Assembly (NCBI GenBank): GCA_017509685.1
Contig: JAFWPA010000083.1
Location: forward strand, 1-32,396
Origin: Bacteroidales bacterium
GTDB taxonomy: Bacteria > Bacteroidota > Bacteroidia > Bacteroidales > UBA932
Direction: 5' to 3'
Length of the DNA stretch: 32,396 nt
Shown piece by piece: positions 1,180 through 17,101 of this stretch. The notes under the pieces were generated by a model. That model saw only the letters and a list, made by a program, of their open reading frames with translations. It did no database searches and was not told the DNA's origin. Position 1 is the stretch's first letter; each line of letters begins with the position of its first letter. The position numbers and the translations under genes were made by a program.

Positions 1180-1191
1180 AGGATTTGCGCT

Positions 1192-2022
1192 ATGAATACC
1201 AATAACAACGTATACACCGTTATCTACACTACCGTCATCGTAGTGATAGTAGCCGCACTCCTTGCCTTCGTTTCCCAGAGCCTCAAGGCCAAGCAGGAAG
1301 CCAACGAAAAGGCGGATACCATTTCCCAGATGCTCACCAGTGCCCAGTATGGCACCAAGGCGGAAATCAGCGGTCTGGGCAATGCGGCCGTCCTGGAGAA
1401 ATACGCCCAGGAGATTGACAAAGCTTTCGTCATTGACCTGGAGGGCAACGTGCTCCGGGATCTGGACGAAATGGAGGTGTACAGCCCCAAGCAGCTGAAA
1501 CGCCAGAACTATAATATTAAAGGTGGTCCCAACAAGACCGGGGAACCGGAACTTCCCGTTTTCCTGTTCAAGAACGGCCGCACGGTGGTTCCCATCTACG
1601 GGGCCGGCCTGTGGGGTCCCATCTGGGGCTACATGAGCTTCGACACCGACCTCAAGACCATCGGCGGCGCCTATTTCGACCACGAGTCCGAAACCGCCGG
1701 CCTGGGTGCCAAGATCAAGGACGACCCTTCCTTCCAGCAGGAATTCGTGGGCGAGGTGGCCGACTTCTCCAGCAAGAATGTCTTTGAAATCGTGAAGGGC
1801 GGAGCCCCCAAGGATGCCGAAGGCAAGTCTGTGGTGGACAACAAGATCGACGCCATCTCCGGCGCTACCATGACCTCCCAGGGCCTGGACGCCGCCATCG
1901 ACACCTGGCTGGGCGCCTATGCCAAGTACTTCATGGGCAATGCGCCCAAGAAGCAGCATTGCGGCAAATGCGGCCATCACCACGAGGGAGAAGAAGTAGA
2001 ATCTAATGAAGTGGAGGAATAA
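1192..2022 (+). CDS. nqrC: Na+-NQR subunit C (FMN-binding), with Cys/His-rich tail
   Basis: A 276-residue subunit with one N-terminal membrane segment (about residues 7-25) and a periplasmic FMN-binding domain. The covalent FMN site is the SGATMTS motif at residues 223-229, with Thr226 as the expected acceptor. NqrC relays electrons between the redox cofactors of the complex. Odd point: after the usual end of the domain the chain continues with a hydrophilic tail from about residue 248. It contains HCGKCGHHH and then an acidic run rich in Glu, which looks like a metal-binding site and which I do not know from NqrC proteins. The gene sits 12 nt after nqrB and 3 nt before nqrD. The end of nqrC (gtggaggaataa) doubles as a purine-rich ribosome-binding region for nqrD. 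Confidence 0.95.
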   Translation: MNTNNNVYTVIYTTVIVVIVAALLAFVSQSLKAKQEANEKADTISQMLTSAQYGTKAEISGLGNAAVLEKYAQEIDKAFVIDLEGNVLRDLDEMEVYSPKQLKRQNYNIKGGPNKTGEPELPVFLFKNGRTVVPIYGAGLWGPIWGYMSFDTDLKTIGGAYFDHESETAGLGAKIKDDPSFQQEFVGEVADFSSKNVFEIVKGGAPKDAEGKSVVDNKIDAISGATMTSQGLDAAIDTWLGAYAKYFMGNAPKKQHCGKCGHHHEGEEVESNEVEE

Positions 2023-2025
2023 GCC

Positions 2026-2640
2026 ATGGATGCAAAACTCAAAGAAACCATTCTGAACCCCATCTTCAAGGGCAACCCCATTACCGTCCTGGTGCTGGGT
2101 ATCTGCTCTTCCCTGGCGGTTACCGTTACCCTGAAGGGTGCGCTGGTCATGGCCCTCTCCGTGATTGTGGTCTGCGGCATCTCCAGCCTCATCCTGTCGC
2201 TGTTGCGCAACACCATTCCCGGCCGCGTACGTATCATCGTACAGCTGGTGGTGGTGGCCATGATGGTGATCCTGGTAGACCAGGTGCTCAAATCCTTCGA
2301 AGCCACTTACGCCATTGACAAGCAACTGTCCGTGTACATCGGCCTCATCATCACCAACTGTATCGTGATGGGCCGTATCGAAGCTTTCGCCCTGGGCAAC
2401 AAGCCCTGGCCCAGCTTCCTGGACGGTGTGGCCAACGGCGCCGGCTACGGCCTCATCCTCATCATCGTTGCCTTCTTCCGCGAGCTCCTGGGCTCCGGTA
2501 CCCTGTTCGGCATCGACATCCTCAACCGCTTCGGCTATGTTCCCAACAACCTGGTGATCCTGCCGCCCTTCGCCCTCATCCTCCTGGGATGCATCGTGTG
2601 GGTGCAGCGTTCCATCCAGAAAGATCTCCAGGAAAAGTAA
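2026..2640 (+). CDS. nqrD: Na+-NQR membrane subunit D
   Basis: A 204-residue, almost wholly hydrophobic inner-membrane protein with about six membrane segments. NqrD and NqrE are homologous, inversely oriented subunits that share an intramembrane iron-sulfur centre held by cysteines from both. Here the matching residues are Cys27 (LGICSSLAV) and Cys112 (IITNCIVMGR), at the same places as in characterised enzymes. Conserved PWPSFLDGVANGAGYG and FFRELLGSGTLFG stretches confirm the subunit. Start at 2026, three bases after the nqrC stop and preceded by GGAGGAA inside the end of nqrC. Confidence 0.96.
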   Translation: MDAKLKETILNPIFKGNPITVLVLGICSSLAVTVTLKGALVMALSVIVVCGISSLILSLLRNTIPGRVRIIVQLVVVAMMVILVDQVLKSFEATYAIDKQLSVYIGLIITNCIVMGRIEAFALGNKPWPSFLDGVANGAGYGLILIIVAFFRELLGSGTLFGIDILNRFGYVPNNLVILPPFALILLGCIVWVQRSIQKDLQEK

Positions 2641-2653
2641 ACTGTAACGCCTT

Positions 2654-3250
2654 ATGGAATATCTTAGCTTATTCACCAAGTCCATCTTTGTGGACAACAT
2701 GATCTTCGCTTACTTCCTGGGAATGTGCTCATTCCTGGCAGTATCGAAGAATGTGAAGACGGCTGCCGGCCTGGGCCTTGCAGTTATCTTCGTGCTCCTG
2801 GTGACCCTCCCCATCAACTATCTGCTCAACACCTATGTGCTGGCCCCCGACGCCCTCATCAAGGGTGTAGACCTTAGCTTCCTCAGCTTCATCGTCTTCA
2901 TCGCGGTCATCGCAGCCATCGTGCAGATTGTAGAAATGGTGGTGGAGAAATTCTCTCCGGAACTTTACTCTTCCCTGGGTATCTTCCTCCCGCTGATTGC
3001 CGTGAACTGCGCCATCCTGGGCGGTTCCCTGTTCATGCAGCAGAAGGACTTCCTGAATATCGGCGAAGCCAGCGTCTACGCCCTGGGCTCCGGTCTGGGC
3101 TGGTTCCTGGCCATCGTCTCGCTGGCCGCCATCCGGGAGAAAATGGCTTACTCCAACGTTCCCCCGGCACTCAAGGGCCTGGGCATCACCTTTATCACCG
3201 TGGGTCTGATGGGCATCGCCTTCATGACCTTCATGGGCATTTCACTGTAG
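2654..3250 (+). CDS. nqrE: Na+-NQR membrane subunit E
   Basis: A 198-residue polytopic membrane protein, partner of NqrD in the transmembrane electron path. The family signature includes [19 protein letters not shown] with Cys25 and [17 protein letters not shown] with Cys119; these are the two iron-sulfur-ligating cysteines expected from NqrE. The C-terminal part ([18 protein letters not shown]) is also typical. It lies 13 nt after nqrD and 12 nt before nqrF. No truncation; length equals the family norm. Confidence 0.96.
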
Positions 3251-3262
3251 GAGGATTGATTT

Positions 3263-4537
3263 ATGGGTAATACAATTCTGTTTTCCATCATCGTCATTAC
3301 AGTAGTGACCCTGATTCTGGTAGCGCTCCTCCTCTGGATCAAGACCGCCCTCACCCCTTCCGGCACCGTGAAGATCAACATCAACAACGGCACCAAGGAG
3401 TTGGAGGTCACCCCCGGCGGAGACGTCATGCACACCCTGGCCGATCACGGCATCTTCCTTCCCTCCGCCTGCGGCGGCAAGGCCAACTGCGGCCAGTGCA
3501 AACTGCAGGTGATTGAAGGCGGCGGCACCATCCTTCCCACCGAAACGGGCTTCTTCTCCCGCAAGCAGATCAAGGAAGGCTGGCGTCTGGGTTGCCAGGT
3601 GAAGGTAAAGGACAACATCCAGATTGCCGTTCCGGAGAGCGCCCTCAGCGTGAAGAAGCTGGAGTGCGAGGTTATCTCCAACGACAACGTGGCCACCTTC
3701 ATCAAGGAATTCACCGTGAAGCTCCCCGAAGGCGAGCACATCGACTTCAAGAGCGGCGAATACATCCAGATCGACATCCCCGAGTACGAAGCCGACTTCG
3801 CCGACATGGGCGTGGCCGATATCTACAAGGGCGACTGGGAGAAGTACGGTATCACTTCCCTGAAGTTCAAGAACACCGTGCCCACCATCCGCGCTTACTC
3901 CATGGCCAGCTATCCGGCCGAAAAGGACCTCATCAAGCTGAACGTACGTATCGCAACTCCTCCGTTCGACCGCACCCAGCCCAAGGGCGTCTTCAAGTTC
4001 GTGCCCGGCGTGCCTCCGGGAATCGCTTCCACCTATGTATTCTCCCGCAAGCCGGGTGACAAGGTGATGATTTCCGGCCCTTACGGCGAGTTCCTCCTCC
4101 CGAAGGACGACCCCGAGGATATGGAATACATCTTCGTTGGCGGCGGTGCCGGTATGGCTCCCCTGCGCAGCCACATCATGCACCTGTTCAAGACCCTCAA
4201 GACCAAGCGTCAGGTACACTTCTTCTACGGCGCCCGCGCCCTGGTGGAAGCCTTCTACCTGGAAGACTTCGCCGAAATCGAAAGGGACTTCCCCAACTTC
4301 CACTTCCATCTGGCCCTGGACCGTCCCGATCCCGCAGCCGATGCCGCTGGCGTGAAGTATACCGCCGGTTTCGTACACAACGTGATGAACGAAACCTACC
4401 TCAAGGACCACGAGGCCCCCGAGGACATCAAGTACTTCATGTGCGGTCCGCCCATGATGACCAAGTGCGTGTGCGACCTCCTGGATTCCCTGGGCGTTGC
4501 ACCCGAAAGCATCCTCTTCGACAACTTCGGAGGTTAA
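3263..4537 (+). CDS. nqrF: Na+-NQR subunit F (NADH dehydrogenase, 2Fe-2S/FAD)
   Basis: A 424-residue electron-entry subunit that oxidises NADH on the cytoplasmic side. Layout: an N-terminal membrane anchor (about residues 4-26), a 2Fe-2S ferredoxin domain with Cys70, Cys76, Cys79 and Cys111 (CGGKANCGQC, then RLGC), an FAD-binding domain with RAYSMASYP, and an NADH-binding domain with GGGAGMAPLRSH and CGPPMMTKC. Chain length and motif order match known NqrF proteins. The start at 3263 has an unusually good Shine-Dalgarno-like GTAGGAGGA 9 nt upstream, a signal that is uncommon in Bacteroidetes. It is the last gene of the operon and is followed by a strong terminator hairpin. Confidence 0.97.
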   Translation: MGNTILFSIIVITVVTLILVALLLWIKTALTPSGTVKININNGTKELEVTPGGDVMHTLADHGIFLPSACGGKANCGQCKLQVIEGGGTILPTETGFFSRKQIKEGWRLGCQVKVKDNIQIAVPESALSVKKLECEVISNDNVATFIKEFTVKLPEGEHIDFKSGEYIQIDIPEYEADFADMGVADIYKGDWEKYGITSLKFKNTVPTIRAYSMASYPAEKDLIKLNVRIATPPFDRTQPKGVFKFVPGVPPGIASTYVFSRKPGDKVMISGPYGEFLLPKDDPEDMEYIFVGGGAGMAPLRSHIMHLFKTLKTKRQVHFFYGARALVEAFYLEDFAEIERDFPNFHFHLALDRPDPAADAAGVKYTAGFVHNVMNETYLKDHEAPEDIKYFMCGPPMMTKCVCDLLDSLGVAPESILFDNFGG

Positions 4538-4598: not shown

Positions 4599-4681
4599 TT
4601 GATAATCTATGTGATTGGAGATTTTCTTTAGGCTCCACGGGCTAAAGAAAAACAAGAACAACATTGATAATCAGCTACTTA
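4599..4681 (+). repeat. 83-bp intergenic hairpin repeat, copy A
   Basis: An element framed by two direct repeats, TTGATAATC (4599-4607) and TTGATAATCAG (4664-4674), whose starts are 65 bp apart. Between them is an A/T-rich hairpin, TTTTCTTTAG (4622-4631) with CTAAAGAAAA (4642-4651), around a GC-rich loop (GCTCCACGGG). The copy matches the reverse complement of 7222-7304 over 83 positions with 9 mismatches by my count. Its right end includes the TAA stop of the lipoprotein gene (4679-4681, read on the minus strand). It lies between two convergent genes. The arms are A/T-only and no T run follows the stem, so it is not a standard terminator. Confidence 0.85.
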
Positions 4682-6427
4682 CAACTTGTTCGAAAAGACG
4701 GCTACCACCGGATAAACCGTGTTCCGCACCACCGGGTCCAGAGGGACGCGGCAGACAAAGGGCGCGCCAGGGTCCGTGTGATAGTCCGGGGAGTGGTATT
4801 CGGCGCTTATCAAGATGTGGCTGGGGTGGATTTCGCTGCAGTTTTCCAGCAGGTAGAGACTGACTGTGCCGCTTAGGCCGTCGTTCAGGTCCCGGTTCAG
4901 CGCCTCCAGTTCCTGTCCTTCCAGCGTGAAGCCCCGGGCAAAGGCCTGGGAGGCGGTCTCTACGCCGCTGCCGGGGAACAGACTCACCGAAGAGGGACAG
5001 TTACCGACGGATACTTCGGCTACTTTCAGCAAAACATCGGCCTCCAACGCCCGCCGGTCCAGGCGAAGGTCCAGGCGCGCCATCAGGCGCTCCAGACGCA
5101 GGGGCATCTGTTCCGTGACCAGAACGTCCTCCAGCACGGCGGCCATGGGGATGCCCTCCCGATAATCGTCGGGGCGGGAAAGGTAGTAGCGGAAGGAGCG
5201 GGCATCGGCCAGGCTGTGAATGGGGAGCCGATAACCCAGGTTGGCGGCCGCCACCAGGGTATAAGGCACATCGCGTAGGAGGCGGGTCTTGTACATGGGC
5301 GTTCCCTTCCCATAGGCGTGCTCTTCCAGGTCGCCGAAGGCGTTGAATATCAAAAGATTCCAGTCGGACAGTTTTACTTCGTCGGGGAAATCGGCCTTGG
5401 TGGAGGCGTCCACATCCAGGGAAATGGTTACTTCTTGCGTCTGGCCGCGTGCCCAGGGAGTGGTGAGGGACTCGGCCACCACCGTGCCGCTTTCCACGGG
5501 CGTGTCGGAATCCGGAGCTCCTTTCCGCTGGAGGGTGAGGTCCAGTTCATACGTCTGCCCGGGCCGGAGGCCGCGGAGGGGGATGGGATAGTAGCAGACA
5601 TCGGCCCCCACCGTTCCCTCCAGCACCAGACAGGTTTGCCGCCCGGGGTAGCAGTAGAAGTCTTTGCCGGGGTAGATTCTTTCCGGGCCGATGACTCCCA
5701 GCCCCTCCTGCCACAGCATCTCAGGATGGGGTAGCCGGCGTACTTCGGCACTGTCCAGGAAGCCGGGGTTCAGCCAGGAAAGAGGCTCCGGAAAGTCTCC
5801 TGCGCCTAAGGGGCGGCACTCGGCACCCGCATAGGTTAGGTACAAATGCTTGTTGAAGAAACAGAAATCGGAATAAGGCTGAGTGCTGAAATCGCAGGAG
5901 ACGGACCGGAGATGGATACGCGCCAAAAGAGGCGAAAGCGCCAGCGACACTTCCCGGGAAGAAGCGTCTTCCACCAGGGCTTCCCCCCACAGCAGGGGAT
6001 CCTGGGGGCTGTCTTTTTCCAGGAGGAAACTGGTCTTGGAGAGGTCGGTATAAGTACGGACACGGTACCACTGATCTGCACCGGAAGACAGCCCGCGCAG
6101 AGCCACCAACCGCTTGACTCCGCTGCGGGACAAGCCCGCGACACTTTTACCTTCCGCGTTGCGCACACGCTGGTAAGCGTCCAGGAGTTGGATGCCGGAT
6201 GTGTCAAAAAAGAACAAATCTACCGTGTCTTGTATTGGATTATTGGTCCATGTTATATATATTTGCCTTCCGTTACGCGCAGGCGCGCTTTCACGCAAGG
6301 GTGTACAGGCAGAAAAAAAGGCCGGTAGCTGCAGTATGGCAGCCAGCATTATCACAGAGGCGTGATTCGCGGCGACGCGCGTGATGTCAGACGGGTGGTT
6401 TATGTTGGTAGAATTCCGGCCTTTCAT
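4679..6427 (-). CDS. Fimbrillin-like surface lipoprotein (FimB/Mfa2 or DUF4906 type)
   Basis: A 582-residue predicted lipoprotein. A hydrophobic stretch (about residues 25-40) ends in FFSAC, with Cys41 as the lipid-attachment residue. The rest is a beta-rich, secreted-type sequence with no enzyme motif. The repeated pattern of a sentence-like domain start (VKLSDWNLLIFNAFGDLEEHAYG) followed by LLRDVPYTLVAAANLG resembles the fimbrial minor-subunit/anchor lipoproteins of Bacteroidales, and I infer membership of that broad group. I chose the start at 6427 because a TAGCTTTG promoter box lies 25 nt upstream (6453-6460) and the downstream Met27 would leave no charged n-region. No fimbrial shaft gene is next to it; the neighbours are nqrF (convergent) and a DUF47 gene (divergent). 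Confidence 0.6.
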   Translation of the reverse strand: MKGRNSTNINHPSDITRVAANHASVIMLAAILQLPAFFSACTPLRESAPARNGRQIYITWTNNPIQDTVDLFFFDTSGIQLLDAYQRVRNAEGKSVAGLSRSGVKRLVALRGLSSGADQWYRVRTYTDLSKTSFLLEKDSPQDPLLWGEALVEDASSREVSLALSPLLARIHLRSVSCDFSTQPYSDFCFFNKHLYLTYAGAECRPLGAGDFPEPLSWLNPGFLDSAEVRRLPHPEMLWQEGLGVIGPERIYPGKDFYCYPGRQTCLVLEGTVGADVCYYPIPLRGLRPGQTYELDLTLQRKGAPDSDTPVESGTVVAESLTTPWARGQTQEVTISLDVDASTKADFPDEVKLSDWNLLIFNAFGDLEEHAYGKGTPMYKTRLLRDVPYTLVAAANLGYRLPIHSLADARSFRYYLSRPDDYREGIPMAAVLEDVLVTEQMPLRLERLMARLDLRLDRRALEADVLLKVAEVSVGNCPSSVSLFPGSGVETASQAFARGFTLEGQELEALNRDLNDGLSGTVSLYLLENCSEIHPSHILISAEYHSPDYHTDPGAPFVCRVPLDPVVRNTVYPVVAVFSNKL

Positions 6428-8818: not shown

Positions 8819-10027
8819 ATGTTCGACAGAGAGAGATTCATCGCGGAACACGTCACCGGAAGGAAGGAGAGCTTCTTCGCCGGGGACATGGTGAAGCATG
8901 AAGAGGAAATCCGCCGGGAAATCAGCGGGAAGAAGGTATGTGTCATTGGCGGCGCCGGCTCCATCGGCAGCGCCTTTATCCGGGAACTGGTGAAATTCGG
9001 CCCCGCGTCCCTCACGGTAGTGGACCTCAGCGAGAACGGCCTGGCCGAACTTACGCGGGACCTGCGCTCCACGGACGGCATCCAGATGCCGGAAGTGTAC
9101 CGCACGTATGCCCTCAACTTCGCCGACCCCATTTTCGCCCGCATCTTCCGGGAGGAGAAAGGCTTTGACATCGTGGCCAATTTCAGCGCCCACAAGCACG
9201 TGCGCAGCGAAAAGGACAAATACGCCGTCCAGGCCCTCCTGGAGAACAACGACATCAAGGCCGCCGGCCTCATGGACCTCCTGTGCGAATATCCCCCGCG
9301 CCACTTCTTCTGCGTGAGCACGGACAAAGCCGCCAATCCCGTGAACGTAATGGGTGCCAGCAAGCGCATCATGGAAGACGTGATCATGGCCTACAAGGAC
9401 CGTTTCAAGGTGAGCACCGCCCGTTTTGCCAACGTGGCCTTCTCCAACGGCTCCCTGCCCGACGCCTGGATGCAGCGCCTGCAGCGCCGTCAGCCCCTGG
9501 CCGCCCCCAAGGACGTAAAACGCTACTTCGTATCCCCCGCCGAAAGCGGACAGATTTGTCTGATGGCCTGTATCCTGGGCCGCGACGGGGAAATCTTCTT
9601 CCCCCGCCTGCAGGAAGACCAGATGAAGACCTTCTCTGAAATCTGCGACGCCTTCCTCGTGGCTAACGGACTAATCAAGAAAGAATTTACGGCCGATGCC
9701 GATGCCCGCGCCTATGCCGCTGCCATGCCGGCAGACAGCAAGGTGTATCCCGTGGTGTACAGCCTGAGCGACACCACCGGCGAAAAGGGTTTCGAAGAAT
9801 TCTACGTCCCCGGCGAGAAACTGGACATGGACCGCTTCGCCAGCCTGGGCGTCATCCTGGAGAGCCCCCGCAAACCGGCCGCCGAAGTGAACGCCTTCCT
9901 GCAGGAACTGGAGGCCATTTTCGCCAGCCCCGATTTTACCAAGGAGGAAGTGGTAAAGGCCATCAAACGCTTCATCCCCAACTTCGAGCACGAAGAAAAG
10001 GGAAAGAACCTGGATCAAAAAATGTAA
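8819..10027 (+). CDS. legB: NDP-N-acetylglucosamine 4,6-dehydratase (LegB type)
   Basis: A 402-residue cytoplasmic SDR of the CapD/FlaA1-like dehydratase group. It should convert an NDP-GlcNAc (GDP-GlcNAc in the legionaminate route) to the 4-keto-6-deoxy sugar, the first committed step. Evidence: the Rossmann motif GGAGSIGS (44-51), NFSAHKHVRSEKD, and STDKAANPVNVMGASK (167-182). In that last motif the usual SDR tyrosine is replaced by Met178 with Lys182 kept, the MxxxK form seen in FlaA1/PglF-type dehydratases. A 40-residue N-terminal extension precedes the Rossmann fold. It is the first gene of the eight-gene operon; legC follows after 1 nt. The nucleotide carrier (GDP or UDP) cannot be read from the sequence; ptmE downstream favours GDP. 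Confidence 0.88.
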   Translation: MFDRERFIAEHVTGRKESFFAGDMVKHEEEIRREISGKKVCVIGGAGSIGSAFIRELVKFGPASLTVVDLSENGLAELTRDLRSTDGIQMPEVYRTYALNFADPIFARIFREEKGFDIVANFSAHKHVRSEKDKYAVQALLENNDIKAAGLMDLLCEYPPRHFFCVSTDKAANPVNVMGASKRIMEDVIMAYKDRFKVSTARFANVAFSNGSLPDAWMQRLQRRQPLAAPKDVKRYFVSPAESGQICLMACILGRDGEIFFPRLQEDQMKTFSEICDAFLVANGLIKKEFTADADARAYAAAMPADSKVYPVVYSLSDTTGEKGFEEFYVPGEKLDMDRFASLGVILESPRKPAAEVNAFLQELEAIFASPDFTKEEVVKAIKRFIPNFEHEEKGKNLDQKM

Positions 10028-10028
10028 G

Positions 10029-11174
10029 ATGCAATACAAGGAAATCACCGATTTTGTGCACCAGCTGTACGGGACCAAAGACTTTGTGCCCCTGAGCGTA
10101 CCGCTGTTTGTAGGAAATGAAAAGAAATACCTGGAGGAGTGCATAGACACCACCTTCGTCTCCAGCGTGGGCCCCTTCGTAGACCGTTTTGAGAAGGAGA
10201 TTGCCGCCTACACCGGCGCCGCCCGCGCCGTGGTGTGCGTGAGCGGCACCAATGCCCTGCATATGTCCCTGATGCTCTCCGGCGTGCAGCGGGACGACGA
10301 AGTCCTCACCCAGGCCCTCACCTTCATCGCCACTTGCAACGCCATCAGCTATATCGGCGCGCATCCCGTCTTCGTGGACGTGGACCGCGAAACCCTGGGC
10401 CTGTCGCCCGACGCCCTGCGCAACTGGCTGAAAGAGAGCGCCGAACTGCGGGAAGACGGTTGCTACAACCGCCGCACCGGCCGCCGCGTGAAGGCCTGCG
10501 TGCCCATGCACACCTTCGGCCATCCCGTGCGCATCGAAGAGGTTGCCGCCATTTGCCAGGAGTGGAAGATTGCCCTGGTAGAGGACGCGGCCGAGAGCAT
10601 CGGCAGCCTGTACCACGGCCGGCATACCGGTACCTTCGCCCCCATCGGCGCCCTGTCCTTCAACGGCAACAAGACCATCACCACGGGCGGCGGCGGCATG
10701 CTGCTTTTCCAGGATCCCGCCGTGGGCGAGCACGCCAAGCACCTCACCACGCAGGCCAAGATGCCCCACCGCTGGGAGTTCCGCCACGACGAAATCGGCT
10801 ACAACTACCGCATGCCCAACATCAATGCGGCCCTGGGATGCGCCCAGCTGGAGAATCTGGACCGCTACATCGAGAGCAAGCGCCGCATCGCCGCAGCGTA
10901 TGCTAATTACTTCAAGGACGTCCCCGGCGTGCAGTTCTTCACCGAACCGGAGGGTTGCCGCTCCAATTACTGGCTCAACGCCGTCATCCTGGAAAACCGG
11001 GAGGCGCGGGACGCCTTCCTGGAATACAGCAACGACAACGGCGTGATGACGCGCCCCGTGTGGGAGCTGATGAACCGCCTGCCCATGTTTGAAAAATGCG
11101 AAACCGACGGCCTGGAGAACACCATCTGGCTGGCCGACCGCATTGTGAATATCCCCAGCAGCGCCAAATTATGA
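10029..11174 (+). CDS. legC: LegC-family PLP aminotransferase (4-aminotransferase)
   Basis: A 381-residue DegT/DnrJ/EryC1 aminotransferase expected to add an amino group at C4 of the 4-keto sugar made by LegB. The PLP lysine is Lys215 in ALSFNGNKTITTGGGGM. VSGTNALHMSLMLSGV and VEDAAESIGSLYHGRHTG are the other PLP-pocket segments. The long N-terminal part (ITDFVHQLYG...VPLSVPLFVGNEKKYLEECIDT) matches the legionaminate-type subfamily rather than short perosamine-type enzymes. It starts one base after the legB stop; its TGA overlaps the legG ATG (ATGA). In the legionaminate route the new amine becomes the C7 nitrogen of the nonulosonic acid. Confidence 0.91.
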   Translation: MQYKEITDFVHQLYGTKDFVPLSVPLFVGNEKKYLEECIDTTFVSSVGPFVDRFEKEIAAYTGAARAVVCVSGTNALHMSLMLSGVQRDDEVLTQALTFIATCNAISYIGAHPVFVDVDRETLGLSPDALRNWLKESAELREDGCYNRRTGRRVKACVPMHTFGHPVRIEEVAAICQEWKIALVEDAAESIGSLYHGRHTGTFAPIGALSFNGNKTITTGGGGMLLFQDPAVGEHAKHLTTQAKMPHRWEFRHDEIGYNYRMPNINAALGCAQLENLDRYIESKRRIAAAYANYFKDVPGVQFFTEPEGCRSNYWLNAVILENREARDAFLEYSNDNGVMTRPVWELMNRLPMFEKCETDGLENTIWLADRIVNIPSSAKL

Positions 11175-12268
11175 AAAAGATAGCCGTCGTCACCGCCACC
11201 CGGGCCGAATACGGCCTGCTCCGCCGGACCGTGGAAGCCCTGCGGGCACAGGCGTGCTTTGACGTGCGGCTCATCGTAACCGGCACGCACTTGAGCCCCG
11301 CCTTCGGGGAAACCTGGAAGGAAATCGAGGCCGACGGCGTGCGCATAGACTGTAAGATAGATTATCTTTCGGAAGACCGCTCCCCCGCCGGCATCGCCCG
11401 GGAAGCCGGCCACTGCGCGCAACTGTTCGCCGATACCCTGGCGCAGATGCAGCCGGACCTGCTGCTGGTGCTGGGAGACCGCTACGAACTACTGCCCATC
11501 TGTTCCAGCGCCCTGGTGCTGGGCATTCCCATCGGCCACATTGGCGGCGGGGAACGCACGGAAGGCGCCATTGACGACGCCGTGCGCAATGCCGTGACCA
11601 TGCTGGCCACCGTCCACTTCCCCAACAGCCCCGAGGCTGCCGAAGCCATCGTGCAGATGCGCGGCAGTGAAGAAAACGTCTTCGAAGTGGGCGAACCCGG
11701 CGCCGAAAACATCCTCAAGGCCACCCTCCCCACAAGGGAAGAGCTGGCCGCCCGCCTGAACCTGGACGCCGCCAAGCCCTGGGTACTGGGCACCCTGCAC
11801 CCTGAAACCCGGGAAAGCCTGGACTACAACCTGTCCATGGCCCGGAACATGCTGGAAGCCCTGGGCCACCTTAATGGATACGAGATTGTGCTCACCAAAG
11901 CCAACGCAGACCCCTGCGGGGAAAAGATGAACGCCCTGTATACCGCCGCCAAAGGCATCCATATGTACGATTCGCTGGGCCAGAACGGTTATCTGGGCCT
12001 GATGAAGGAAGCCGCCTTTGTCATTGGCAATTCCAGCAGCGGCGTCATCGAGGCGCCCCTTTTCGGCACGCCGGTGGTGAATATCGGCCACAGGCAGACA
12101 GGCCGGAAAATGAACCGCTGCGTCATCCCCTGCGAAGCGGGACTTCAAGACATCCAGGCCGCCATCGCAGCCGTCAAAGGGCGTTTCCAGCCCGATATCC
12201 TTCCCGGCACCGGCCATACGTCGGAACTCATCGCAGGACACTTAAAAGCGTATTTCCATGAACTTTAA
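11171..12268 (+). CDS. legG: NDP-sugar hydrolase/2-epimerase (NeuC/LegG type)
   Basis: A 365-residue hydrolysing 2-epimerase. It removes the nucleotide and inverts C2 of the di-N-substituted trideoxyglucose to give the mannose-configured hexose that LegI condenses. Motifs: TRAEYG (10-15), GDRYE (102-106), HIGGGE (123-128), HPET (210-213), GNSSSGVIEAP (286-296); all match the NeuC/WecB fold. The start at 11171 overlaps the legC stop by 4 nt; the open frame upstream of it is a shadow of legC. Its last 11 bases overlap the next gene. All active-site segments are intact. Confidence 0.93.
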   Translation: MKKIAVVTATRAEYGLLRRTVEALRAQACFDVRLIVTGTHLSPAFGETWKEIEADGVRIDCKIDYLSEDRSPAGIAREAGHCAQLFADTLAQMQPDLLLVLGDRYELLPICSSALVLGIPIGHIGGGERTEGAIDDAVRNAVTMLATVHFPNSPEAAEAIVQMRGSEENVFEVGEPGAENILKATLPTREELAARLNLDAAKPWVLGTLHPETRESLDYNLSMARNMLEALGHLNGYEIVLTKANADPCGEKMNALYTAAKGIHMYDSLGQNGYLGLMKEAAFVIGNSSSGVIEAPLFGTPVVNIGHRQTGRKMNRCVIPCEAGLQDIQAAIAAVKGRFQPDILPGTGHTSELIAGHLKAYFHEL

Positions 12269-13397
12269 CGAGCTCCGCACACCCTGTTTCATCCTGGACG
12301 CAGATACCCTGCGCCACCTGTACCGCAGTTTCCGGGACGCCCTGCAAAACCACTTTGCCAGCGCCCGGGTGGCCTATTCCGTGAAAACGAATGCCAATCC
12401 CACCCTGCTGCAGATCCTGCTGGAAGAGGGCGCCGCGGCCGAAGTGGTGTCGGATACCGAATATGACCTGGCATCGGCCCTGGGATTCCAGGAAATCGTG
12501 TTCAACGGCCCCGTCAAGGGAAAGGAGCACTTCCTGAAAGCCCTGGAGGACGGCCAAACAGTGAATATTGACAGCAAACGGGAGCTGGACTGGCTGGGGG
12601 AACTGCCCGCCGGAGCGCAGGCTTCCGTGGGGCTTCGTGTGAACGTGCCGCTGCCGGACGACGACACCTTCTCCCGCTTCGGCTTCGGGATGGAGGAGTT
12701 CAAGGAGGCCGTGGAGCGCATCAAGGCCCTTCCGAACGTGCGCCTGGCCGGCCTGCACCTGCACCGCACCTCCAGGACCCGCAGCCTGGAAGTGTATGCC
12801 ACCATCGCCGCCAAGGCGGCCGCCGTGCTGCATGCTTATAAGTTGGAGCCGGACTACATTGATATCGGCGGCGGTTACTTTGGGGAGATGCCCGGGAAAC
12901 CTTCCTTTGAAGAATATGCGGCCACGCTGGCCAAGGGACTCAAGGATTACCCCCGCGCCCGCATCATCGTGGAGCCGGGCAATGCCCTGTGCGCCGGCGT
13001 CTTCTCCTTCCTTTCCAGCGTGCTGGACGTGAAGGAAATCAGCGGCCACGCCGTGGTGGTGTGCGACGGCAGCCGCAACGACATCGACCCCTTCTTCCGC
13101 AAGACAGACTATTTCAAATCCTTCCCCACGGTAGAGGAAGGCCGGCCCCACGCACCCATACAGACGGTGGTGGGTGGCACCTGCCTGGAAAACGACCGCC
13201 TCTTTACGCTGGAGGGAGAACCGGCGCTGCGTCCCGGAGACCGCATCGCCTTTGCCAATACGGGAGCCTATACAATGGCCCTGAGCCCCCTGTTCATCCG
13301 CTATTTCCCGCGGGTGTATGTCCTGGAAAGCGGCCTGTACCGCCTGGCCAGCGAACAGTGGAGTGCCCAAGATTACTTAAACGCCTATGGAATATAA
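12258..13397 (+). CDS. Type III PLP-dependent decarboxylase-like protein
   Basis: A 379-residue fold-III (alanine-racemase-like barrel plus C-terminal domain) protein of the Orn/DAP/Arg decarboxylase 2 group, as in LysA, NspC and BtrK. Visible residues: the PLP lysine Lys43 in AYSVKTNANP, GGGYFG (204-209) for phosphate binding, EPG (239-241), Cys309 with Asp313 (GGTCLENDR), and GAYTMALSPLF with Tyr338. The usual HxHxGS block reads HLHRTS (167-172), so the glycine is replaced. The substrate is unknown. It is not an ordinary LysA by context: the gene overlaps legG by 11 nt and the ATP-grasp gene by 11 nt inside the legionaminate operon. I infer a role in making or trimming an amino-acid-derived N-acyl group. 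An inactive or racemase-like role is possible. Confidence 0.85.
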   Translation: MNFNELRTPCFILDADTLRHLYRSFRDALQNHFASARVAYSVKTNANPTLLQILLEEGAAAEVVSDTEYDLASALGFQEIVFNGPVKGKEHFLKALEDGQTVNIDSKRELDWLGELPAGAQASVGLRVNVPLPDDDTFSRFGFGMEEFKEAVERIKALPNVRLAGLHLHRTSRTRSLEVYATIAAKAAAVLHAYKLEPDYIDIGGGYFGEMPGKPSFEEYAATLAKGLKDYPRARIIVEPGNALCAGVFSFLSSVLDVKEISGHAVVVCDGSRNDIDPFFRKTDYFKSFPTVEEGRPHAPIQTVVGGTCLENDRLFTLEGEPALRPGDRIAFANTGAYTMALSPLFIRYFPRVYVLESGLYRLASEQWSAQDYLNAYGI

Positions 13398-14385
13398 CCT
13401 TCTTTGCTGTAACGTGGGCCGTCGCGGCCGCCTGATGCTGGACTTCCGCAAGTCGCTTGCCGGAAAGGGCCTGGTAGTGGGCACCGACAACTGGAGCGTG
13501 GCCCCCGCCATCTTCCTGGCCGACAAAATGTACGTGACGCCCAAGATCACGGACCCGCACTATATGGATGAGGTTTTCGCCATCTGCGAAAAGGAGCATA
13601 TCCGCGCCGTGAGCACGTTCATCGACCCCGAAATCGAAGTGCTGGCCGCCCACCGGGATGAATTCCTGGCCAAGGGCATACTGCCTCTATGTCCTTCCCT
13701 GAAAACAGCCCAGCTGTGCATGGACAAGTACCTGATGTTCAAGCATCTGAAGGAACACGGCGTAAGGACAGTCCTCACCTACCGCACGCTGGCCGACTTC
13801 CAGGCCGGTCTGGGCGCCGGGGAGATTGACTTCCCCGTGTTCATCAAACCGGTGAAAGGCAGCGGCAGCGTGGGCGCCCGCAAGGTGAACGACATGGAGA
13901 CGCTCAAGGACCTCTTTGCCGAAGGGGCCCACGACTATATCATCCAGGAACTGATGACCGAAGGAGACTGCGACGCCGACGTATACGTAGACTGCATCTC
14001 CCACCAGGTGATTTCCGTCTTTTCCAAGCGCAAGATCGAGACCCGCATCGGCGGGGCCTCCAAGACCATCAGCTTCAAGGACCCCTCCCTCTTTGCCTTC
14101 GTGCAGGAGGTAGTGAGCGTGCTGGAACTCAGCGGCCCCTGCGACATGGACTTCTTCATCAAGGGCGGCCAGTGGTACCTGTCGGAAATCAATCCGCGCT
14201 TCGGCGGAGCCTATCTGCATGCCTACGGCGCCGGGGTGGACTTTGTGAAATACATCCTGCAGAACATGGACGGGAAGGCCTCCCAGCCGGAAATCGGCCA
14301 GTACGACGAAGGTGTGCTGATGCTGATGTACGACGACGTGGTCATCGCCCGCGAGGCCGATTTGCTGAGAGACTACCATGACTAA
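13387..14385 (+). CDS. CarB/PylC-like ATP-grasp ligase
   Basis: A 332-residue ATP-grasp protein resembling the carbamoyl-phosphate-synthase large-subunit-like ligases found in polysaccharide loci. Layout: an N-terminal pre-ATP-grasp domain (NVGRRGRLMLDFRKSL; STFIDPEIEVLA), the DKYLMFKHLKEHGV segment (113-126), FIKPVKGSGSVGARKV with ATP-binding Lys154, and the metal site DMDFF...EINPRFGG with Glu267 and Asn269. Such enzymes join a carboxylate to an amine through an acyl phosphate. It overlaps the decarboxylase gene by 11 nt and legI by 8 nt. In this position, and with no LegH acetyltransferase in the operon, it is the best candidate for acylating a sugar amine. The substrate cannot be read from the sequence. 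Confidence 0.88.
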   Translation: MEYNLLCCNVGRRGRLMLDFRKSLAGKGLVVGTDNWSVAPAIFLADKMYVTPKITDPHYMDEVFAICEKEHIRAVSTFIDPEIEVLAAHRDEFLAKGILPLCPSLKTAQLCMDKYLMFKHLKEHGVRTVLTYRTLADFQAGLGAGEIDFPVFIKPVKGSGSVGARKVNDMETLKDLFAEGAHDYIIQELMTEGDCDADVYVDCISHQVISVFSKRKIETRIGGASKTISFKDPSLFAFVQEVVSVLELSGPCDMDFFIKGGQWYLSEINPRFGGAYLHAYGAGVDFVKYILQNMDGKASQPEIGQYDEGVLMLMYDDVVIAREADLLRDYHD

Positions 14386-15376
14386 GACCTTCATCATAGC
14401 CGAAGCCGGGGTGAACCACAACGGCCGCCTGGACCTGGCGCTGCAGCTTTGCGACGCCGCCAAGGCCGCCGGGGCCGATGCCGTCAAGTTCCAGACCTGG
14501 GTGACGGAGAAAATCATTGTCCCGGACACGCAGAAGGCCGATTACCAAAAGGCCAACAGCGGCGCCGGCGAATCCCAGTACCAGATGCTGAAAGCGCTGG
14601 AGCTGGGCTACGACCAGTTTGCGCAGATCAAGGCCTACTGCGACCGCATAGGCATCACCTTCCTCTCTACCGGCGACAATCCCGAGGACGTGGATTTCCT
14701 GCTGGGGCTGGGCATGCCGCTGGTCAAGATTGGCTCCGGCGACATCACCAACATTCCCCTGCTGCGCCATATCGGCGCCTGCGGCAAGCCCGTCATCCTC
14801 TCTACGGGGATGGCCGATATGGAGATGGTGCGCAAAGCGTACCGAACGCTGCAGGAGGCCGGTGCAAAAGACATCACGGTGCTGCACTGCACCACCAACT
14901 ACCCCTGCCCGCCGCAGGAAGTGAACCTGAAGGCCATGCTCACCATGAAGGCCGAACTGGGCTGCCCCGTGGGCTATTCAGACCATACGCTGGGAACCGA
15001 GGTTCCCGTGGCCGCCGTGGCCATGGGCGCCTGCGTCATCGAAAAGCACCTGACGCTGGACAGCCAGATGGAAGGCCCGGACCATGCCGCTTCCATGGAG
15101 CCGGACGCCTTTAGAGAAATGTGCCGCCAGATTCGCGCCATCGAGGTGGCGCTGGGCAGCGGCGTCAAGGAACCCAACGCCAGCGAGAAGGCCATCTCCG
15201 GCGTGGTGCTCAAACGCATCGTGGCCGCCAGTCCCATCCGCAAGGGAGAGGTGCTGTCGGCCCAGAATTTGGCCGTCAAACGCGCCCCCCAGGGCCTCAG
15301 TGTGGACCATTGGGACCAGGTTTGCGGCACGGTGGCCGGCCGGGATTACCAGACAGACGAACCTATCCAGTTATGA
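14378..15376 (+). CDS. legI: N,N'-disubstituted legionaminate synthase (NeuB family)
   Basis: A 332-residue PEP-dependent synthase that condenses the 6-deoxy-mannosamine derivative with phosphoenolpyruvate to make the nine-carbon 2-keto acid. The NeuB barrel shows IAEAGVNHNG (7-16), DAVKFQTW (34-41), LSTGMADMEM, TTNYPCPPQEVNL, GYSDHTLG and EKHLTLDSQMEGPDHAASMEP. An SAF (antifreeze-like) domain covers roughly residues 275-332. GDNPEDVDFL and the 4-amino-sugar context favour legionaminate over sialate or pseudaminate, but this is subfamily-level inference. It overlaps the ATP-grasp gene by 8 nt and legF by 4 nt (ATGA). Confidence 0.92.
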   Translation: MTKTFIIAEAGVNHNGRLDLALQLCDAAKAAGADAVKFQTWVTEKIIVPDTQKADYQKANSGAGESQYQMLKALELGYDQFAQIKAYCDRIGITFLSTGDNPEDVDFLLGLGMPLVKIGSGDITNIPLLRHIGACGKPVILSTGMADMEMVRKAYRTLQEAGAKDITVLHCTTNYPCPPQEVNLKAMLTMKAELGCPVGYSDHTLGTEVPVAAVAMGACVIEKHLTLDSQMEGPDHAASMEPDAFREMCRQIRAIEVALGSGVKEPNASEKAISGVVLKRIVAASPIRKGEVLSAQNLAVKRAPQGLSVDHWDQVCGTVAGRDYQTDEPIQL

Positions 15377-16095
15377 AAACGCTCATTACCATCTGCGCCC
15401 GCGGCGGCTCCAAAGGCATTCCGGGCAAGAATATCAAGACCATCGCCGGGAAACCGCTGATTGCCTATTCCATCGAGTGCGCCCGCAAGGTGCAGGCGGC
15501 CGTCGGCGCCGATATCATCCTGTCCACGGACTCCGCCGACATCACCGCCGTGGCGGCCTCCCTGGGGTTGGAGACGCCCTACCATCGGCCGGCCGAACTG
15601 GCCAACGACACCTGCGGCAAGCTGGACGCCATCGCCCACGCATGGGCCTGGGCCGAGGAACACTTCGGCTGCCGCTACGACTATGTGCTGGACCTGGACT
15701 GCACCTCTCCCCTGCGCACCCTGCAGGACGTTCTGGAAGGGTTCAAGCTGCTGGAGGCAGACCCGCAGGCCCTGGACATTTTCTCCGTGAGCCCCGCCGG
15801 CCGCAACCCCTATTTCAATATGGTGGAGCAGAAGCCCAGCGGCTACTTTGACCTGGTGATGGAGGGCAGCACCTTCACCACGCGCCAGGGTTCCCCAAAG
15901 GTGTACGACATGAACGGCTCTTTTTATATCTATCGGCGCCGTTTCTTCGAGGAGAACTTGCGGGATCCCAACACTCCCCTGTCCCTGGTGTACATCATGC
16001 CCCACCTGTGCTTCGACCTGGACGAGCGCACGGACTTTGACTATATGAGTTTCCTGCTGGAGCAGAACAAACTAGACTTTACCATCAATGGATAA
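15373..16095 (+). CDS. legF: CMP-legionaminate synthetase (cytidylyltransferase)
   Basis: A 240-residue CMP-nonulosonate synthetase that activates the keto acid with CTP. The N-terminal CTP-binding loop is ARGGSKGIPGKN (9-20). YDYVLDLDCTSPLRT carries the metal/CTP aspartates, and YDMNGSFYIYRR matches the C-terminal substrate region of NeuA/LegF enzymes. Length is normal for single-domain members. The true start is at 15373, where ATG overlaps the legI TGA; the longer open frame upstream is a shadow. It overlaps ptmE by 8 nt. Confidence 0.92.
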   Translation: MKTLITICARGGSKGIPGKNIKTIAGKPLIAYSIECARKVQAAVGADIILSTDSADITAVAASLGLETPYHRPAELANDTCGKLDAIAHAWAWAEEHFGCRYDYVLDLDCTSPLRTLQDVLEGFKLLEADPQALDIFSVSPAGRNPYFNMVEQKPSGYFDLVMEGSTFTTRQGSPKVYDMNGSFYIYRRRFFEENLRDPNTPLSLVYIMPHLCFDLDERTDFDYMSFLLEQNKLDFTING

Positions 16096-17101
16096 TATCA
16101 TCGGAAGAAACGCCAGCGTGCGGGAAGCCCTGGCCCTCATGGAAGACATCGATCTGCTGAAAACCCTCTTCGTGGTGGACGAGGAAGGCCATCTGGTGGG
16201 CACGCTCACCGACGGCGACATCCGTCGCGGCACGTTAAGCGGCAAAAGCATCGATGACACCGTAAGTGCTTTCATGCACCGCAATTTCCGCTCCGTGGTG
16301 GAAGGCGATGTAGATGTGGAATTCCTCAAGGCCTGCCGGGAAAAGGGCATTTTCATTATCCCCGTACTGGATATCACCGGACGGCTGAAAGAAATCATCA
16401 ACCTCAAGGAGAAGAAGAGCATCCTCCCCATCGACGCCGTCCTGATGGCCGGCGGGCAAGGCAAACGGCTGCGTCCCCTCACGGAAAATACGCCCAAGCC
16501 CCTGCTGAAGGTGGGCGGGAAAGCCATCATCGACCACACGATTGACCGCCTGCACAGCTATGGCGTGGGCCGTATCTGCGTGACGGTGAACTACCTGGCC
16601 AGCCAGATGATCGAGCACTTCAAGGATGCGCCGGGTGTGGAATGCGTGCAGGAACAGGAGTTCATGGGCACCATCGGCTCCCTGCGCTTTGTGAAGGACC
16701 TGGGCGAAGAAATCCTGGTGATGAATTCCGACATCCTCACCCAGATTGACTACGAAGCCTTTTACCTGCAGTTCCGCCACAGCGGGGCCGATATGTGCAT
16801 CGCCACCACCCCCTACGATGTCTCCATCCCCTACGGCATCATGGAATTCCGCAACGGACAGGTGAAGTGCATCAAGGAAAAGCCCGTGTTCAACTACTAC
16901 GCCAACGCAGGCATCTACCTCATAAAGAAATCCGTTCTGGATCTCATCCCTGAAGGACGCGTCTTCGACGCCACAGACCTGGTGAACGCCCTAGCCGCCA
17001 ACGGTGGCAAGGTGGTACACTTCCCCATCAACGGTATCTGGATTGATATCGGCAGCTTCGAGGAATATCAGAAGGCCTGCGAACTGGTGGCCAGAGGATA
17101 G
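16088..17101 (+). CDS. ptmE: CBS-domain sugar-phosphate nucleotidyltransferase (PtmE type)
   Basis: A 337-residue two-part protein. Residues about 1-110 form a CBS pair (VREALALMEDIDLLKTLFVVDEEGHLVGTLTDGDIRRG). Residues 115-337 form a nucleotidyltransferase with AGGQGKRLRPLT (121-132), KP at 137-138 and NSD (213-215). The same architecture in Campylobacter PtmE makes GDP-glucosamine, the source of GDP-GlcNAc for legionaminate. It therefore suggests that this operon uses GDP-linked intermediates. CBS pairs usually bind adenosyl ligands, so activity may follow energy state. It is the last gene of the operon. Its stop lies only 4 nt from the convergent waaA stop, with no terminator between. Confidence 0.87.
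   Translation: MDNIIGRNASVREALALMEDIDLLKTLFVVDEEGHLVGTLTDGDIRRGTLSGKSIDDTVSAFMHRNFRSVVEGDVDVEFLKACREKGIFIIPVLDITGRLKEIINLKEKKSILPIDAVLMAGGQGKRLRPLTENTPKPLLKVGGKAIIDHTIDRLHSYGVGRICVTVNYLASQMIEHFKDAPGVECVQEQEFMGTIGSLRFVKDLGEEILVMNSDILTQIDYEAFYLQFRHSGADMCIATTPYDVSIPYGIMEFRNGQVKCIKEKPVFNYYANAGIYLIKKSVLDLIPEGRVFDATDLVNALAANGGKVVHFPINGIWIDIGSFEEYQKACELVARG

What the first reader, a model, noticed from the sequence alone, without database searches (positions are those of the whole stretch)
8819..17101. Legionaminate operon without LegH but with a PLP decarboxylase and an ATP-grasp ligase
Seen: eight same-strand genes with 1-nt gaps or overlapping ends, in the order legB, legC, legG, PLP decarboxylase, ATP-grasp, legI, legF, ptmE. 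Known: the Campylobacter-type GDP route needs an acetyltransferase (LegH) on the C4 amine made by LegC; known nonulosonic acids also carry amino-acid-derived N-acyl groups in some bacteria. Inference: no GNAT or hexapeptide acetyltransferase is here, and the two extra genes overlap both legG and legI, so they probably act in the pathway. The ATP-grasp enzyme would couple a carboxylate to a sugar amine, and the decarboxylase would make the acyl donor or trim it after attachment, as BtrJ/BtrK do in butirosin side-chain synthesis. The product would be a legionaminate with an unusual N-acyl group.
Basis: partly seen in the sequence, partly recalled or inferred. Interest (0 to 1): 0.74.

Follow-up and report, generated by a model that had tools for sequence, protein, structure and literature searches.

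The report
Legionaminate operon with swapped N-acylation genes
A bacterium's gene set for a sialic-acid-like sugar lacks the usual acetyl-adding enzyme and instead carries an amide-forming ligase and a decarboxylase, which probably attach and then trim an amino acid so that the sugar ends in an unusual, positively charged group.

Summary
In detail: eight tightly packed genes (8819-17101), no acetyltransferase among them, and a PLP decarboxylase / ATP-grasp pair between legG and legI. One label is wrong: "legB" is not of the LegB family (TIGR04180) but a PF02719 dehydratase. The order recurs in four rumen Bacteroidales loci; in Prevotella amnii the pair lies beside a PglC-type transferase, without leg genes. 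Among 38 LegC+LegI loci, 22 have a NeuD-type LegH in the operon and 11 an ATP-grasp (5 this pair, 6 a distant one); none has both in the operon, but one has a NeuD gene just outside. On the LegC tree the pair arose once; the distant ATP-grasp needs at least four changes. None of six pair genomes shows a full-length NeuD. The closest solved decarboxylase is FigC/FslC, whose clade includes enzymes that trim amino acids after conjugation. Best reading: the ATP-grasp replaces LegH by coupling an amino acid to the LegC-made amine, and the decarboxylase removes its alpha-carboxylate, leaving an amino-acyl (for example beta-alanyl or 4-aminobutanoyl) sugar. Acyl group, acceptor and order of steps are inferred.

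The parts
8819..10027 (+). 4,6-dehydratase of PF02719 type, probably filling the LegB step (not TIGR04180 LegB)
10029..11174 (+). legC, PLP aminotransferase TIGR04181
   Evidence: 560 bits over cut-off 420
11171..12268 (+). legG, hydrolysing 2-epimerase (NeuC/LegG type)
   Evidence: TIGR03568 365 bits; start
12258..13397 (+). type III (alanine-racemase-fold) PLP decarboxylase, closest solved relative FigC/FslC
13387..14385 (+). ATP-grasp carboxylate-amine ligase (PRK12767/PylC-like)
14378..15376 (+). legI, NeuB-family synthase
   Evidence: TIGR03569 448 bits over cut-off 400
15373..16095 (+). legF, CMP-nonulosonate cytidylyltransferase
   Evidence: PF02348; PseF 115 bits, below its cut-off; start
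16088..17101 (+). ptmE-like CBS + sugar-1-phosphate nucleotidyltransferase

Best explanation
The operon makes a CMP-activated legionaminic acid (or its 8-epimer) in which the usual LegH acetylation of the LegC-made amine is replaced by a two-enzyme module. The ATP-grasp enzyme activates a carboxylate with ATP and couples it to the amine (future N-7); the most likely donor carboxylate is the side chain of an acidic amino acid. The FigC/BtrK-like decarboxylase then removes the alpha-carboxylate of the attached amino acid, leaving an omega-amino-acyl amide such as beta-alanyl or 4-aminobutanoyl with a free, positively charged amine. Shown by sequence: gene content, conserved order, conserved catalytic motifs, no NeuD-type LegH found, exclusion of NeuD and ATP-grasp within operons. 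Inferred: acceptor amine, order of the two steps, identity of the acyl group.
For: Pair inside the leg operon in 5 of 5 leg loci that have it (window, L004-L007) and adjacent in L008. In-operon exclusion with NeuD: 22 NeuD and 11 ATP-grasp among 38 loci, overlap 0 (naive hypergeometric 3.6e-6, not corrected for relatedness). On the LegC tree the pair is one clade (SH-aLRT 100), the distant ATP-grasp needs at least 4 changes, and a NeuD locus (L059) and an ATP-grasp locus (L056) of one genus are sisters (SH-aLRT 100). Formyltransferase-like proteins stand in the slot of L061 (family scan) and L095 (by similarity to L061). Full-length NeuD genome-wide: 0 of 6 pair genomes; positive controls chosen for a NeuD in the operon 6 of 6. 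The profile of six pair decarboxylases scores FigC/FslC 172 bits, the best DAP decarboxylase 142, BtrK 109. The own genome has a separate lysA (389 bits). Positions that bind DAP in lysA-type enzymes (roles partly from PMC7857480 section 8, partly recalled) differ: the Arg of lysA's LGR is N242 and the Glu of its CES is L310, both invariant in 6 of 6; the Arg of its IRP falls on D277 (alignment to 2p3e) or P278 (alignment), not on a basic residue. Precedents: PglB2 (ATP-grasp), mutually exclusive with acetyltransferase PglB, makes a glyceramido sugar (PMC11130364 passages); a C. difficile ATP-grasp gene is needed for a peptidylamido-sugar (PMC5207246 passages).
Against: The pair lies after legG, not directly after legC where most NeuD and all six distant ATP-grasp genes lie, so it may act later. 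The genome is 79% complete (completeness of the L004-L008 genomes was not shown), and a GNAT-type LegH was not searched for. L044 has an ATP-grasp in the slot and a NeuD gene about 1 kb downstream on the other strand (the same gene is the G417 hit); G499 and G207, two more of the six genomes with the distant ATP-grasp, hold a full-length NeuD on another contig. The pair traces to one origin on the LegC tree, so its five leg loci are not independent. The FigC clade also holds DAPDC and D-ODC, which act on free amino acids (PMC7857480 section 14). The AlphaFold model's pocket loops (272-285, 307-314) have pLDDT below 50, so the pocket could not be read.
Confidence: 0.5

Rival explanations
1. Decarboxylase first: the decarboxylase makes a free omega-amino acid (beta-alanine, GABA or similar) and the ATP-grasp enzyme then couples it to the LegC-made amine. 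The product is the same or similar; the order differs.
For: Same genetic evidence for the module. The gene order is decarboxylase then ligase in all six loci. The FigC clade also holds enzymes of free amino acids (DAPDC, D-ODC).
Against: FigC, the closest solved relative, and SbnH, AcsE, MccE and BtrK of its clade act on conjugated amino acids (PMC7857480 section 14). In the distant pair of L108 the ligase gene comes first.
Confidence: 0.2
2. The pair acylates another amine or another stage (the C-2 amine, the sugar after LegG, or a different amino sugar), so that the product differs from a simple N-7 acyl variant.
For: The pair sits after legG. In P. amnii it occurs without leg genes in the 13.8 kb held, next to a PglC-type transferase; two DegT-family aminotransferases of that genome lie on other contigs, so its acceptor there is probably another amino sugar.
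Against: In 30 of 38 loci the operon holds one alternative of this kind (NeuD, distant ATP-grasp or formyltransferase), and here the LegH-like function is the one not found.
Confidence: 0.17
3. Ordinary di-N-acetyl legionaminate: a LegH of GNAT or other type lies elsewhere or in the missing part of the genome, and the pair adds something later or does something unrelated.
For: Genome 79% complete. C. jejuni LegH is not of NeuD type (recalled). L044 shows that an ATP-grasp in the slot can coexist with a NeuD gene near by.
Against: None of six pair genomes shows a full-length NeuD, and the order with 8-11 nt overlaps in the window is kept among loci whose decarboxylases are 65-79% identical to it.
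Confidence: 0.1

Closest known systems
Campylobacter/Tannerella CMP-legionaminate pathway (LegBCHGIF; PtmE, PtmF, PtmA)
   Same: LegC, LegG, LegI, LegF and PtmE-like steps; relatives L004-L007 also have PtmF- and PtmA-like genes
   Different: No LegH found; decarboxylase + ATP-grasp pair instead; LegB step filled by a PF02719 dehydratase; window lacks ptmF and ptmA (best ptmA match in the genome 33% identical)
Neisseria PglB / PglB2 swap (acetyltransferase versus ATP-grasp; diNAcBac versus GATDH)
   Same: An ATP-grasp domain stands in for a sugar acetyltransferase, the two being mutually exclusive (PMC11130364 passages)
   Different: PglB2 is fused to a phosphoglycosyltransferase and makes a glyceramido sugar; no decarboxylase partner is mentioned in the passages read
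FigC/FslC, SbnH, AcsE, MccE, BtrK decarboxylases (within clade 2 of PMC7857480)
   Same: Alanine-racemase-fold PLP enzymes that trim an amino acid after it has been attached to something; FigC is the best PDB match
   Different: The substrates named in section 14 are citryl-amino acids, a microcin C intermediate and a Glu-carrier protein, none a sugar
C. difficile type B flagellin glycan genes (ATP-grasp CDR20291_0245)
   Same: An ATP-grasp gene, annotated as putative carbamoyl-phosphate synthetase, in a cluster with an aminotransferase-like gene, needed for a peptidylamido-sugar (PMC5207246 passages)
   Different: Partners are ornithine cyclodeaminase-like and FemAB-like; no leg-type genes are named in the passages read

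Membership tests
CMP-legionaminate biosynthesis operon | LegC-family aminotransferase | tested here: met
   TIGR04181 560 bits, cut-off 420
CMP-legionaminate biosynthesis operon | NeuB-family synthase and hydrolysing 2-epimerase | tested here: met
   TIGR03569 448 bits, TIGR03568 365 bits, both over cut-off
CMP-legionaminate biosynthesis operon | LegB-family dehydratase (TIGR04180) | tested here: not met
   no TIGR04180 hit at E<=0.001; PF02719 type, 3pvz-like; controls L045 and L050 hit it
CMP-legionaminate biosynthesis operon | LegH acetyltransferase, NeuD type | tested here: not met
   best hit in the 79% complete genome 47 bits, partial, cut-off 160.8
CMP-legionaminate biosynthesis operon | LegH acetyltransferase, GNAT type, elsewhere in the genome | not tested
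   no GNAT search of the whole genome was made; 20 window proteins scanned have none
CMP-legionaminate biosynthesis operon | product is a legionaminic acid by stereochemistry | not testable with these tools
   needs NMR or mass spectrometry; a PF02719 dehydratase could be retaining or inverting (recalled)
Clade-2 (FigC/SbnH/BtrK/DAPDC) PLP decarboxylases | closer to FigC, DAPDC and BtrK than to ODC or CANSDC | tested here: met
   best bits: FigC 172, DAPDC 142, BtrK 109, ODC 86, CANSDC 51; no tree with these enzymes was built
Clade-2 (FigC/SbnH/BtrK/DAPDC) PLP decarboxylases | acts on a conjugated amino acid, as FigC, SbnH, AcsE, MccE and BtrK do | not testable with these tools
   needs an enzyme assay
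Diaminopimelate decarboxylase | lysA equivalog score and DAP-contact residues | tested here: not met
   142.7 bits, cut-off 297.9; true lysA on C50; PGN and CLE where the own lysA has LGR and CES
ATP-grasp carboxylate-amine ligases (PRK12767 group) | family score and conserved ATP-grasp residues | tested here: met
   NF009406 453 bits, cut-off 271; SEINPRFGG and F(I/M)KP conserved in 6 of 6

The most novel reading that the evidence does not exclude
A 'ligate, then decarboxylate' cassette installs an omega-amino-acyl group (beta-alanyl or 4-aminobutanoyl) on a sialic-acid-like sugar, giving a zwitterionic nonulosonic acid; and the LegH position of these leg operons is a swap site for at least four N-acylation chemistries (NeuD acetyltransferase, formyltransferase, ATP-grasp with or without a HAD-like partner, ATP-grasp with decarboxylase).
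Probability: 0.35. Interest if true: 0.7.

Novelty: new variant of a known kind. Interest (0 to 1): 0.55.

Why it matters
Bacterial nonulosonic acids resemble host sialic acid, and their N-acyl groups change charge and recognition (general knowledge). [quoted passage not shown] The slot comparison gives concrete candidates, not only here but also for the ATP-grasp plus HAD-like pair in five other loci, and makes each one testable with purified enzymes.

Tried and rejected
Diaminopimelate decarboxylase was rejected. CANSDC-like identity, suggested by the CLxxD motif (recalled for CANSDC), was set aside by the profile ranking. A wide distribution of the pair was looked for and not found: decarboxylase at E<=1e-40 in 1 of 149 family genomes and 2 of 393 order genomes, own genome included; profile A1 at E<=1e-55 in 3 of 395 phylum genomes, own included; profile A2 at E<=1e-60 in 1 of 393 order genomes, the own. 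Of 26 plasmid records with a match the 20 listed are at most 30.1% identical. The genome-contig scan uses exact peptide patterns of one protein and finds close relatives only. Paper searches gave no paper; searches gave lists, of which I looked into those cited. In these searches I saw no paper that puts an ATP-grasp and decarboxylase pair in legionaminate synthesis; the nearest is PMC3765264 (NeuB-domain and ATP-grasp genes for a flagellin nonulosonate). The searches match words literally (one search missed PMC11130364, which writes 'ATP grasp'), only 20 of the 80 papers of one search were listed, and most subscription journals are not held. The pocket could not be read from the AlphaFold model; the fold search and the ATP-grasp model were never run.
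Full report
Observation. The eight genes are present at the stated coordinates on one strand, with one 1-nt gap and six overlaps of 4 to 11 nt. Pfam and NCBIfam confirm LegC, a hydrolysing 2-epimerase, a type III PLP decarboxylase, an ATP-grasp protein of the PRK12767/PylC-like group, a NeuB-family synthase, a cytidylyltransferase and a CBS-nucleotidyltransferase. The first gene needs a new label: it has no TIGR04180 (LegB) match and belongs to PF02719; its best PDB match is 3pvz, named UDP-N-acetylglucosamine 4,6-dehydratase, at 317 bits. Of 37 fetched LegC+LegI loci (the window not counted), 31 have a gene of over 250 aa close upstream of legC; in 11 of these it is similar to the window's gene, among them all four relatives with the pair. 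Of the other 20, two were tested and are TIGR04180 LegB over the cut-off. Because the dehydratase sets the configuration that becomes C-8 (recalled), the sugar could be legionaminate or its 8-epimer.

Setting. The window is a whole contig (C89) of a 2.31 Mb, 79% complete assembly in 91 contigs; its order is inferred to be Bacteroidales from the named relatives. One scan of genome contigs with the decarboxylase gave five relatives. Four are Bacteroidales MAGs (two roe deer rumen, one goat abomasum, one of the RUG series; decarboxylase 65-79%, ATP-grasp 78-92% identical) with the same order legB-legC-legG-decarboxylase-ATP-grasp-legI-legF, followed by ptmF-ptmA-ptmE. The window lacks ptmF and ptmA, and the best ptmA match in its genome is 33% identical. 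The fifth, Prevotella amnii (L008; 45% and 62%), has the two genes side by side after a PF02397 sugar-phosphate transferase and an NAD-dependent epimerase, with no leg gene in the 13.8 kb held, which ends at a contig end; two DegT-family aminotransferases of that genome lie on other contigs. So the pair does not seem tied to legionaminate alone. It is rare: 1 of 149 family and 2 of 393 order genomes at E<=1e-40, own genome included.

The slot test. LegC was found at E<=1e-120 in 56 of 393 genomes of the order, 58 places. I fetched the 57 places other than the own one and added L004-L007 and the window: 62 loci. 24 were dropped because legI was not found in the stretch; 38 remained. In the operon, 22 carry a NeuD-type protein, 5 the pair, 6 a distant ATP-grasp (22-28% identical to the window's; in 5 of 6 followed by a 102-106-aa HAD-like protein), 2 a formyltransferase-like protein, and 3 none of these (L043, L062, and L094, whose legC is cut at a contig end). 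The 22 NeuD calls rest on clustering and on a profile made from 8 of them that scores all 22 at 105 bits or more; six of them also match TIGR03570, five over its cut-off and L049 with 132 bits below it. L063, counted as NeuD, also has FemAB-like and formyltransferase-like ORFs. No operon has both NeuD and ATP-grasp; the naive chance is 3.6e-6, which ignores relatedness. The NeuD profile run on all ORFs of at least 90 aa of the 61 fetched loci, both strands, finds one exception near by: L044, about 1 kb beyond its operon on the other strand. Across whole genomes a full-length NeuD match (at least 129 bits) is in 0 of 6 pair genomes (best partial hit 69 bits), 3 of 6 genomes with the distant ATP-grasp (G417, which is L044's, G499 and G207), 1 of 2 with a formyltransferase (G378), and 6 of 6 positive controls chosen for a NeuD in the operon.

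Tree. On a LegC tree of the 38 rows (quick method, SH-aLRT only; 9 of 35 inner branches starred, 11 open) the pair is one clade (100), the distant ATP-grasp needs at least four changes by starred branches, and all five labels together need 10 changes against a shuffled mean of 15.2. L059 (NeuD) and L056 (ATP-grasp), of one genus (g27), are sisters with support 100. So the acylation gene has been swapped more than once while LegC was kept, but the pair itself entered this group once.

Decarboxylase. The profile of six pair decarboxylases matches FigC/FslC, N-citrylornithine decarboxylase 7kh2, best (172 bits; DAPDC 142, BtrK 109, ODC 86, CANSDC 51). The paper on FigC (PMC7857480; passages and sections 8 and 14 read) places FigC in a clade with SbnH, AcsE, MccE and BtrK, which act on citryl-amino acids, a microcin C intermediate and a Glu-carrier protein, that is on amino acids already attached to something; the clade also holds DAPDC and D-ODC, which do not. 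It says that the residue beside the catalytic Cys is Met in FigC; it is Leu (L310) in all six pair enzymes. The DAPDC specificity-helix Arg that it names has no basic counterpart in the pair enzymes: it falls on D277 in the HMMER alignment or on P278 in MAFFT's, both invariant. The PLP lysine K43, the GGG loop, E239, C309 and Y338 are invariant (roles recalled). An AlphaFold2 model from six sequences has mean pLDDT 75 but under 50 in the pocket loops, so the pocket was not interpreted, and no fold search was run.

ATP-grasp. The best PDB match is 2pn1, listed only as 'carbamoylphosphate synthase large subunit' (E 1e-69). The ATP-grasp signature residues are conserved in 6 of 6. The close members seen all stand beside the decarboxylase (6 of 6 loci), but five of those loci were found through the decarboxylase; the one search made with the ATP-grasp profile found only the window (1 of 393).

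Mechanism. A carboxylate-amine ligase in the place of an acetyltransferase, plus a decarboxylase whose nearest solved kin trims a conjugate, fits 'attach an acidic amino acid through its side chain, then remove the alpha-carboxylate'. The product would be Leg5Ac7(beta-alanyl) or Leg5Ac7(4-aminobutanoyl), or a related acyl, with a free amine. Precedents for the first half are PglB2 of Neisseria (PMC11130364 passages) and the C. difficile peptidylamido-sugar ATP-grasp (PMC5207246 passages); Shewanella oneidensis has an operon with NeuB-domain and ATP-grasp genes for flagellin modification (PMC3765264 passages). Precedents for the second half are FigC and BtrK. In searches I saw no paper that joins the two on a sugar; the library lacks most subscription journals.

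Limits. Nothing here identifies the acyl group, the acceptor amine or the order of steps. The position after legG rather than after legC leaves a later acceptor possible. The genome is incomplete and GNAT-type LegH was not searched. The exclusion rests on a handful of independent events (one for the pair, at least four changes for the distant ATP-grasp) and has one near exception.

Verdict. A real, conserved variant of the legionaminate pathway; the replacement of LegH by an ATP-grasp is likely (my estimate 0.7), trimming after attachment is the likelier of the two orders, and the named acyl groups are guesses.

Noticed in passing
L047, L050, L054, L055, L056 (between legC and legI): A different ATP-grasp followed by a 102-106-aa HAD-like protein (in L050 weakly similar to capsule phosphatases EcbF-BcbF) holds the LegH slot; a candidate for N-glyceroyl or another hydroxyacyl group.
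   Followed up: partly
L061:8367-9272 and L095:8224-9117: A formyltransferase (Formyl_trans_N/C in L061; L095 similar to it) sits in the LegH slot, suggesting N-formyl legionaminate.
   Followed up: partly
L043:2923-4990, also L062 and L063: A protein without Pfam match (looks like a fold-I PLP enzyme) plus a FemAB/GNAT_6 protein lies between legG and legI in L043, and similar ORFs lie before legI in L062 and L063; perhaps another aminoacyl module.
   Followed up: partly
window 16088-16095 compared with L004-L007: ptmF and ptmA, present between legF and ptmE in all four relatives, are missing in the window; the best ptmA match in the assembly is 33% identical.
   Followed up: partly
L107 and L109: A decarboxylase 31-32% identical to the window's beside a sugar-transferase-like gene, an aldolase-like gene (HpcH/HpaI in L109) and an aminotransferase-like gene (class IV in L109), without ATP-grasp; L107 was not scanned against families.
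   Followed up: partly
L108:8210-10611: A distant ATP-grasp (22%) and decarboxylase (30%) pair beside an ORF with urea transporter and peptidase M23 domains in another family of the phylum.
   Followed up: partly
window 67-4537 and 4679-6427: Upstream lie what look like nqrBCDEF genes (naming recalled; only the last was scanned), then a 582-aa protein on the - strand with no Pfam or NCBIfam match.
   Followed up: no
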